Part shown: one piece after another, positions 46,544-48,147 of the stretch
How positions within the stretch are numbered: the stretch's first letter is position 1
Layout: every line of letters begins with the position of its first letter
DNA from: Candidatus Limimonas egerieequi
GTDB lineage: Bacteria; Bacillota; Clostridia; Oscillospirales; Acutalibacteraceae
Assembly (NCBI GenBank): GCA_018064455.1
Contig: JAGHVH010000010.1
Span: forward strand, 124,001-188,000
DNA length: 64,000 nucleotides
Direction of reading: 5' to 3'
Notes under the pieces: generated by a model
Databases searched by the model: none
Told to the model about the DNA's origin: nothing
The model's input: the letters and a program-made list of their open reading frames with translations, nothing else
Position numbers and translations under genes: made by a program

Positions 46544-46577
46544 GACTTCCCACAGTTAAAGTGGGAAGTCATTTTTT
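46544..46577. terminator. bidirectional intrinsic terminator
   Basis: GACTTCCCA-CAGTTAAAG-TGGGAAGTC with A/T tracts. Confidence 0.85.
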
Positions 46578-48147
46578 ATGCAACTACAACTGATGTTGTA
46601 ATATATGTGCCTGCAACACTTGCAGCATTTATAAACGAGTTCTTAATTACAACAACTGGATCAACAATCTTCATCTTGAGAAGATCACCATATTCACCAG
46701 TCAATGCATTAAATCCGTATGATGCAGATTTGTTTTTGTCGATTGTATCAACAACAACGCTTGCATCAACGCCAGAGTTCTCTGAGAGCTGTCTTATTGG
46801 CGCTTCAAGGCAATTTAGAATTACACTTGCGCCAATCGCCTCATCGCCACTGAGCGTCTCACAGAATGCCTTAACGTCATCACGGCAAAGAAGTAATGCT
46901 TTGCCGCCACCAGGCACGATGCCTGTCTCTGCTGCGCGCTTTGCTGCGTTGAGGGCGTCCTCAATGCGGAACTTGCGTTCAAACATCTCAAGTTCCGATG
47001 TACCGCCAACCTCAACAACTGCACATGCGGAATTGAGCATTGCAAGTGCCTGCTCAAGTTTGTCAACTTGATATGGATGTGTCTCCGTCTTGAGCTGTTC
47101 CTCTACCTGATGCTTGAGTGTCAATGCCTCTTCACACTCAGGACATGCTGGCTGCATAACAGTTGTCACGTTCTTGTCGCATACAACATTCTTAGCATGA
47201 CCGCAAACTGAAAGTCCACATTCCTTAATATCCATATATGCGCTATCAACAAGTGTTGCACCTGTTATTGCCGCAAGGCATTTAAGGTTTCTATCTCTTG
47301 TATCAGTATAACCAGGTGCCTTGATAGCAATTACACTTACAACGCCCTTCTCAGCGTTTGCAGCGAGTGCTCCAAGGGCCTCGCCCTTGATATCCTTAGC
47401 AATGATGAGAAGAGGTGCTTTATTTGTTACAGCCTCTTCAAGAAGATGATATATCTGAGCAATCTCAACTATCTCATCCATACATACAAAGATATATGGG
47501 TCTTCCATTTCACAGATGTTCTTGTTCTTATCTGTGATGAAATAACGTGAGAGATAACCTGAATCAATCCTACAACCGTGAGAGATTACAAGCTTGGTTT
47601 CAGCCATCTGAGTGTCCATCAAAGTGACAACTGGTGAGAAGCCTAGTTCCTTGTAAATGCTTTCAACAAGGTCGCCTATATCCTTGTCATTGTTACTCGA
47701 GATAGTAGCGATGTTATTAATTGATTCTGTATCATCAATCTTGGTAGCAATGCTATCGAGTTTTTTAAGAACAACGTCAACAGCCTTGTCCATACCACGT
47801 TTAATGAATATTGGATTGGCACCAGCGGCAATTGCCTTGTGCGCCTCATTAATTATTGACTGAGCAAGTATAACAGAAGCAGTTGTACCATCTCCTGACT
47901 CCTCGTTTGACTTGGTTGTAATCTCACGAAGGAGAAGCGCGCCCATGTTCTCAAACTTGTCCTCAAGAAGGATGTTTGTTGCAATCTCATAGCCGTCATT
48001 TGAAACAAGTGGCACGTCATACTGCCTTGTGAATGCAACATTGCGTCCCTTTGGTCCGAATGTCATCTTCACAGCATCTGCCACTTTGTTAATTCCGGCT
48101 ATCATTGATCCGCTTGCCTGTTCGTTAAATAAAATATCTTTACCCAT
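46576..48147 (-). CDS. divergent GroEL-like (Cpn60) chaperonin
   Basis: VADAVKMTFGPKGRNV, EDKFENMGALLLREI, GDGTTASVILAQ, APLLIIAKDIKGEAL, IEDALNAAKRAAETGIVPGGGKAL; ends ...AASVAGTYITTSVVVA with no GGM tail. Confidence 0.93.
   Translation of the reverse strand: MGKDILFNEQASGSMIAGINKVADAVKMTFGPKGRNVAFTRQYDVPLVSNDGYEIATNILLEDKFENMGALLLREITTKSNEESGDGTTASVILAQSIINEAHKAIAAGANPIFIKRGMDKAVDVVLKKLDSIATKIDDTESINNIATISSNNDKDIGDLVESIYKELGFSPVVTLMDTQMAETKLVISHGCRIDSGYLSRYFITDKNKNICEMEDPYIFVCMDEIVEIAQIYHLLEEAVTNKAPLLIIAKDIKGEALGALAANAEKGVVSVIAIKAPGYTDTRDRNLKCLAAITGATLVDSAYMDIKECGLSVCGHAKNVVCDKNVTTVMQPACPECEEALTLKHQVEEQLKTETHPYQVDKLEQALAMLNSACAVVEVGGTSELEMFERKFRIEDALNAAKRAAETGIVPGGGKALLLCRDDVKAFCETLSGDEAIGASVILNCLEAPIRQLSENSGVDASVVVDTIDKNKSASYGFNALTGEYGDLLKMKIVDPVVVIKNSFINAASVAGTYITTSVVVA

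What the first reader, a model, noticed from the sequence alone, without database searches (positions are those of the whole stretch)
46576..48147. Divergent GroEL-like chaperonin without groES or GGM tail, in a UroD methyltransferase operon
Seen: the Cpn60 core and ATPase motifs are kept (GPKGRNV, GDGTT, the IEDAL aspartate region). The protein ends at ...TTSVVVA without the Gly-Gly-Met tail. No groES is nearby. The apical/intermediate region carries unusual cysteines (KECGLSVCGHAKNVVCDKNV, QPACPECEEAL with a CPEC pair) at the position of the GroEL TTIIDGVG segment. Inference: a specialised client chaperone for the UroD or corrinoid proteins, or a metal/redox-sensitive chaperonin. I know of no described corrinoid-system chaperonin but cannot search.
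Basis: partly seen in the sequence, partly recalled or inferred. Interest (0 to 1): 0.8.

Follow-up and report, generated by a model that had tools for sequence, protein, structure and literature searches.

The report
Second chaperonin in methyltransferase gene cluster
Some gut-type anaerobic bacteria of one genus carry, besides their normal GroEL protein-folding machine, a second fast-evolving GroEL-like protein that is present only in species that also carry one particular vitamin-B12-dependent methyl-transfer gene cluster, so it is probably a folding helper dedicated to that cluster.

Summary
Window 46576-48147 (-) encodes a 523-aa group I chaperonin, 39% identical to the genome's own GroEL, with no GGM tail and no groES beside it. 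A normal groESL lies on the same contig, 67 kb away, and passes the GroEL equivalog model (821 bits, cut-off 582); the window protein fails it (508). All catalytic ATP-site residues are kept. The protein belongs to a clade separate from all housekeeping GroELs compared (support 100/100). The gene is in 8 of 11 genomes of its genus, the same 8 that hold the UroD methyltransferase. In all 8 it is directly downstream of UroD and a small gene (about 50-90 aa); in two, its start codon lies 1-5 bases from the small gene's stop. It is under purifying selection but evolves about 3.5 times faster than housekeeping GroEL. Best explanation: a client-dedicated foldase for the corrinoid methyltransferase cluster, with altered GroES/substrate-binding residues. 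Precedents are MmoG and the GroEL-like gene beside gbu clusters. UroD relatives at about 55% identity lack it, so it is a lineage-specific addition. Client and GroES dependence are inferred, not shown.

The parts
46576..48147 (-). Divergent group I chaperonin (Cpn60/GroEL paralogue), 523 aa, no GGM tail
   Evidence: PF00118 201 bits; GroEL equivalog TIGR02348 508 bits, below its 582 cut-off; separate clade, 100/100; ATP residues kept; AlphaFold pLDDT 88.7, GroEL fold by Foldseek
48240..48443 (-). Small 67-aa protein with acidic N-terminus and conserved WPYASYPxGxNKLLNKxMPFWARPxKKMMG core; UroD companion, not a GroES
   Evidence: Present between UroD and Cpn60 in all 8 genomes; no Pfam hit; small genes also follow other UroD genes that have no chaperonin
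48457..49659 (-). UroD-superfamily corrinoid methyltransferase (probable MT1; starts MREIEKNMKPKEL), 400 aa
   Evidence: PF01208 34.8 bits; profile's only PDB match is CdmB, E 1.7e-9; 81-95% identical in the other chaperonin carriers
48148..48239 (-). Intergenic regulatory stretch: TATAAT box, then a stem-loop with T-run (terminator-like), then the Cpn60 ribosome-binding site
   Evidence: Promoter- and terminator-like hits; box and hairpin conserved with changed stem sequence in five species; arranged as terminator then promoter in G004
46544..46570 (.). Bidirectional terminator-like hairpin between the convergent Cpn60 and PucR-family genes
44932..46536 (+). PucR/CdaR-type regulator (HTH_30, GGDEF_2), convergent with Cpn60
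   Evidence: PF13556, PF17853; conserved in the cluster
43372..44919 (+). RACo-type reductive activator of corrinoid protein (2Fe-2S plus ASKHA)
   Evidence: PF14574, PF17651; NCBIfam AcsV-like below cut-off
42465..43175 (-). Corrinoid protein (B12-binding_2 plus B12-binding); start probably MADLAKLKEAMG, about 43100
   Evidence: PF02607, PF02310
41655..42461 (-). Methyl-THF:corrinoid methyltransferase (MeTr, probable MT2)
   Evidence: PF00809; NF005719 273 bits, above its 259 cut-off
41014..41616 (-). ECF transporter S component, folate-like; plausible supply of THF to MeTr
   Evidence: PF12822; TIGR04518 57.4 bits, just below its 60 cut-off

Best explanation
46576-48147 is a specialised, probably client-dedicated group I chaperonin (an ATP-driven Cpn60 ring) that serves the adjacent corrinoid methyltransferase cluster (UroD MT1, small companion, corrinoid protein, MeTr MT2, RACo activator, PucR regulator). 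Proposed action: made together with or beside UroD, it captures one or a few cluster proteins and lets them reach an active, corrinoid-competent state that the housekeeping GroESL handles poorly. The likeliest clients are the two TIM-barrel methyltransferases, UroD above all. Shown: separate paralogue clade, intact ATP site, GroEL fold, strict co-occurrence with UroD, operon-like gene contact in two species, purifying selection, a second GGM-type groESL in the genome. Inferred: ring formation, which client, and reduced or altered dependence on GroES, drawn from V263A and V264A/R/M in the GroES/substrate-binding helix and from R197S.
For: Canonical groEL+groES elsewhere on the same contig, with a ...AQGGMY tail; equivalog score 821 for it against 508 for the paralogue. 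Paralogue clade split from housekeeping GroELs at 100/100 by a 1.17 substitutions/site branch. Invariant G32, P33, D52, D87, T89, T90, D398, G414-G416 and D495. Present in 8 of 11 genus genomes, exactly the 8 that hold UroD; G007 (98% complete) lacks both. Gene order UroD-small-Cpn60 in all 8, with 1-bp and 5-bp spacing in G001 and G006. In G004 a second corrinoid-protein gene lies directly downstream of Cpn60. Contig sizes of two Cpn60/UroD cluster pairs coincide (207408 and 6827). Mean pN/pS 0.30 against 0.11 for housekeeping groEL, matching RACo and PucR of the cluster. Precedents: a groEL-like gene beside gbu clusters in Clostridia, where native GroES/EL-like proteins were needed at 37 C and E. 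coli chaperones did not help (PMC10653785); MmoG (PMC5874634). Paralogues without a Gly-Met tail tend to be specialised (PMC11978752, PMC5904260).
Against: UroD relatives at about 55% identity in genus g66 sit in similar clusters with no adjacent Cpn60, and UroD protein clusters at 55-61% show no matching Cpn60 contig, so the enzyme class does not need it. Within the genus the flanking genes on the UroD side are also syntenic, so adjacency alone is weak and the pattern may be one gain or loss event. In 6 of 8 species Cpn60 has its own promoter-like box beside a terminator-like hairpin, so strict co-transcription with UroD is not general. No client, ring or ATPase was measured.
Confidence: 0.55

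Rival explanations
1. A general second (stress or backup) chaperonin that only lies beside the cluster through vertical inheritance, with no functional tie.
For: All carriers with known context are one genus and share flanking genes on the UroD side; it has its own promoter-like box in 6 of 8 species.
Against: Exact presence/absence match with UroD in 11 genomes; 1-5 bp contact with the UroD-small genes in two species; altered GroES/substrate-binding residues and lost GGM tail do not suit a general backup; housekeeping groESL is present in the same genome.
Confidence: 0.2
2. MmoG-like regulatory chaperonin: it matures or assists the PucR-type regulator (44932-46536) so that the cluster is switched on.
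For: The regulator gene is the convergent neighbour in the carriers (in G004 a corrinoid gene lies between) and evolves at the same rate. MmoG is needed for MmoR binding in methanotrophs (PMC5874634). A different second Cpn60 in G918 lies on the same contig as a PucR-type gene.
Against: Convergent, not co-directional; in gene order the chaperonin is tied to UroD-small. MmoR is a sigma-54 activator, a different family.
Confidence: 0.13
3. Redox- or metal-sensitive chaperonin whose cysteines sense oxygen or bind metal for the corrinoid system.
For: Cysteine content averages 9.1 per protein in the inner clade against 1.8 in housekeeping GroELs; C310/C315 in 17/18 and 18/18 inner members.
Against: The CPEC pair is confined to 3 of 18; no conserved four-cysteine site; strict anaerobes tolerate free cysteines; C310/C315 also occur in distant relatives not shown to have corrinoid genes.
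Confidence: 0.07
4. Decaying duplicate on the way to a pseudogene.
For: Fast evolution relative to housekeeping groEL.
Against: Open frame in all 8 genomes, pS about 0.6-0.8 with pN 0.1-0.3 against the window copy, all ATP residues kept.
Confidence: 0.02

Closest known systems
Housekeeping GroEL (group I Cpn60, TIGR02348)
   Same: Full-length fold, ATP site, 39% identity to the genome's own copy; Foldseek top hits are all GroEL/Hsp60.
   Different: Below equivalog cut-off, no groES partner gene, no GGM tail, V263A/V264A, R197S, cysteine-rich.
MmoG (GroEL-like protein of soluble methane monooxygenase operons)
   Same: GroEL-like gene inside a metabolic gene cluster with its own regulator (PMC5874634).
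   Different: Aerobic di-iron monooxygenase system; no sequence test of kinship with this clade was made.
GroEL-like gene beside gbu clusters of gut Clostridia (Agathobaculum desmolans, Eubacterium minutum)
   Same: Anaerobic Clostridia; GroEL-like gene beside a catabolic cluster; native GroES/EL-like proteins were needed for function at 37 C (PMC10653785).
   Different: gamma-Butyrobetaine to TMA pathway, not shown to be corrinoid methyl transfer; in the tested organism the chaperone came with a groES; sequences could not be compared here.
Cdm / Mto / Odm corrinoid methyltransferase systems (UroD-type MT1)
   Same: MT1 + corrinoid protein + MeTr MT2 + activator; the UroD profile hits CdmB.
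   Different: No chaperonin is mentioned in the cdm paper searched (PMC13222342); substrate of this UroD unknown.

Membership tests
Group I chaperonin (Cpn60) | Cpn60 fold over full length | tested here: met
   PF00118, AlphaFold/Foldseek
Group I chaperonin (Cpn60) | ATP-binding and hydrolysis residues incl. D52, D87, D398, D495 | tested here: met
Group I chaperonin (Cpn60) | Seven-fold (single or double) ring | not testable with these tools
   Only a monomer was modelled
Housekeeping GroEL (TIGR02348 equivalog) | Score above curated cut-off 582.1 | tested here: not met
   508.3 bits; own canonical GroEL 821.4
Housekeeping GroEL (TIGR02348 equivalog) | Adjacent groES | tested here: not met
Housekeeping GroEL (TIGR02348 equivalog) | Gly-Met-rich C-terminal tail | tested here: not met
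Housekeeping GroEL (TIGR02348 equivalog) | Conserved hydrophobic GroES/substrate-binding residues | tested here: inconclusive
   Y199, S201, Y203, F204, L237, L259, N265 kept; L234Y, V263A, V264A changed
MmoG-like operon chaperonins | Orthology or common clade with MmoG | not tested
   No MmoG sequence was brought in; resemblance is by gene context only
UroD-type corrinoid MT1 (CdmB/MtoB/OdmB-like), for the neighbour 48457-49659 | UroD fold, sequence kinship to a characterised MT1, corrinoid protein + MeTr + activator beside it | tested here: met
UroD-type corrinoid MT1 (CdmB/MtoB/OdmB-like), for the neighbour 48457-49659 | Methyl transfer from a defined substrate | not testable with these tools
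   Substrate unknown

The most novel reading that the evidence does not exclude
A previously undescribed family of GroES-independent or GroES-altered group I chaperonins has evolved as a component of a corrinoid methyltransferase system, required to mature its UroD methyltransferase (and perhaps to load or hold the corrinoid protein).
Probability: 0.3. Interest if true: 0.75.

Novelty: new variant of a known kind. Interest (0 to 1): 0.5.

Why it matters
Operon-embedded GroEL paralogues are known from a few systems, but none turned up for corrinoid methyltransferases in the literature searched. If the dedication is real, it offers a natural chaperonin-client pair: a ring tied to one small cluster whose binding face has changed while its ATP site has not. 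That would test how GroEL specificity and GroES dependence evolve. It could also explain why some anaerobic methyltransferases express poorly in E. coli.

Tried and rejected
CIRCE heat-shock operator: none in the window or the canonical groESL region within 3 mismatches, so uninformative. Small upstream protein as a GroES substitute: rejected; no Cpn10 match, and small genes of similar size accompany other UroD genes without a chaperonin. Sole chaperonin in G009/G010: these genomes show no groESL, but in G010 the gene expected about 2 kb from groES starts 2 kb from a contig end, and in G009 that gene is also missing, so an assembly gap explains it. Contexts of the distant clade P0027-P0038: sought in order, class and phylum samples without success; the genome-contig scan returned only ordinary GroELs; UroD hits at 55% or more share none of their contig sizes. 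Phage or plasmid origin was not pursued.

Full report
What is there. The ORF at 46576-48147 on the minus strand encodes 523 aa and matches Cpn60 along its whole length. It scores 508 bits against the GroEL equivalog model, below the 582 cut-off, whereas the GroEL at C9:102053-103624 of the same contig scores 821, has groES beside it and ends ...AQGGMY. The two proteins are 39% identical. The window is C9:124001-188000 of a 273-kb contig, so both copies lie on one assembled piece and the second copy is not a binning artefact.

Relationships. Among 5.8 billion proteins, P0001-P0026 (53-97% identity) form an inner group and P0027, P0029-P0038 (45-49%) an outer one; after that come ordinary GroELs at about 42%. 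In two trees the inner+outer set is one side of a branch with support 100 and 100/100 with length 1.17, and the host's own GroEL sits with its relatives. Two of the listed hits, P0028 and P0039, look like ordinary GroELs with internal repeats and were left out. Clade-marking residues include F at 40, D at 45, C at 317, S at 385 and F at 390 in E. coli numbering.

Machinery. Every catalytic residue checked for ATP binding and hydrolysis is kept, with conservative exceptions in single members (one neighbouring position, T91, is A in almost the whole clade); R395 is invariant and K105 invariant in the inner group. Changed in the inner group: R197S, R13 lost, L234 mostly Y, V263A in all, V264 to A/R/M/K, E252K/R. 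From general knowledge of E. coli GroEL (not tested here), positions 234, 263 and 264 contribute to GroES and substrate binding and R197 to apical-domain allostery. The AlphaFold monomer is confident (pLDDT 88.7) and its PDB matches are GroEL/Hsp60 chains.

Cysteines. CPEC at 335-338 occurs in 3 of 18 inner members. The pair C310 and C315 (CGLxxCG) occurs in 17/18 and 18/18 inner and 10/10 and 8/10 outer members and in 1 of 56 housekeeping GroELs each; inner proteins average 9.1 cysteines against 1.8.

Neighbourhood. The cluster is MeTr, corrinoid protein, RACo activator, PucR-type regulator, Cpn60, small protein, UroD. It is conserved in all eight same-genus genomes that have the Cpn60, as far as contigs reach. 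The genus has 11 genomes here: eight with both UroD and Cpn60, three with neither. Two of those three are incomplete; G007 is 98% complete. In a sample of 300 family genomes only the window's genus and genus g66 had a related UroD; that of g66 is 55% identical and lies in a similar cluster without a neighbouring Cpn60. In a sample of 396 order genomes only the window's own genome had a close UroD. In G004, the most divergent carrier, a second B12-binding protein gene follows Cpn60 directly.

Transcription. In G001 and G006 the Cpn60 start codon lies 1 and 5 bases after the small gene's stop. In the window and G003, G005, G009, G010 there is an 80-90 base gap with a conserved TATAAT and a hairpin whose stem sequence differs between species but stays paired, followed by a T-rich stretch. 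In G004 a hairpin precedes a TATAAT box. My reading (inference): UroD-small transcripts can end there and Cpn60 can be started separately.

Selection. Mean pN/pS is 0.30 for Cpn60 and 0.11 for housekeeping groEL; mean dN is 0.275 against 0.079, over overlapping but not identical sets of genomes. UroD is as conserved as housekeeping groEL, while RACo and PucR evolve as fast as Cpn60. So the gene is functional but its constraints differ.

Mechanism. Dedicated chaperonins are known: MmoG for methane monooxygenase regulation (PMC5874634), and native GroES/EL-like proteins for the gbu pathway, where E. coli chaperones failed and GroEL-like genes lie beside gbu in three Clostridia (PMC10653785). UroD and MeTr are TIM-barrel proteins, a class commonly helped by GroEL (general knowledge). 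The best reading is a chaperonin for the cluster with UroD as the leading client. The g66 clusters show that such a UroD can exist without it, so it is an accessory that one lineage came to use.

Literature limits. Full-text searches for chaperonin/GroEL with corrinoid methyltransferase terms found nothing relevant; only open-licence papers are covered.

Noticed in passing
L189:5016-6737 (genome G918): A different, very divergent second Cpn60 (long branch) beside a ketopantoate-hydroxymethyltransferase-like gene, with SDR genes and a PucR-type regulator on the same contig: another metabolic-locus chaperonin in the same family.
   Followed up: partly
48240-48443; L185:9104-9307, L187:4611-4808, L186:9205-9438, L188:6058-6240: UroD methyltransferase genes in these genomes are regularly accompanied by an uncharacterised 50-90 aa gene; several share a YPxG motif. 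Possibly a UroD partner protein.
   Followed up: partly
41014-41616: Folate-like ECF transporter S component next to the methyl-THF methyltransferase; 81% identical in G009, replaced by other genes in G001 and G004.
   Followed up: no
48457-49659: This UroD family has invariant E294, H315, E317, C350 and near-invariant E371 rather than an obvious His-Cys-Cys zinc set as in coenzyme M methyltransferases, which would point to O-methyl or halide rather than S-methyl substrates.
   Followed up: partly
L120:8433-9071: Second corrinoid protein gene directly downstream of the chaperonin in G004.
   Followed up: partly
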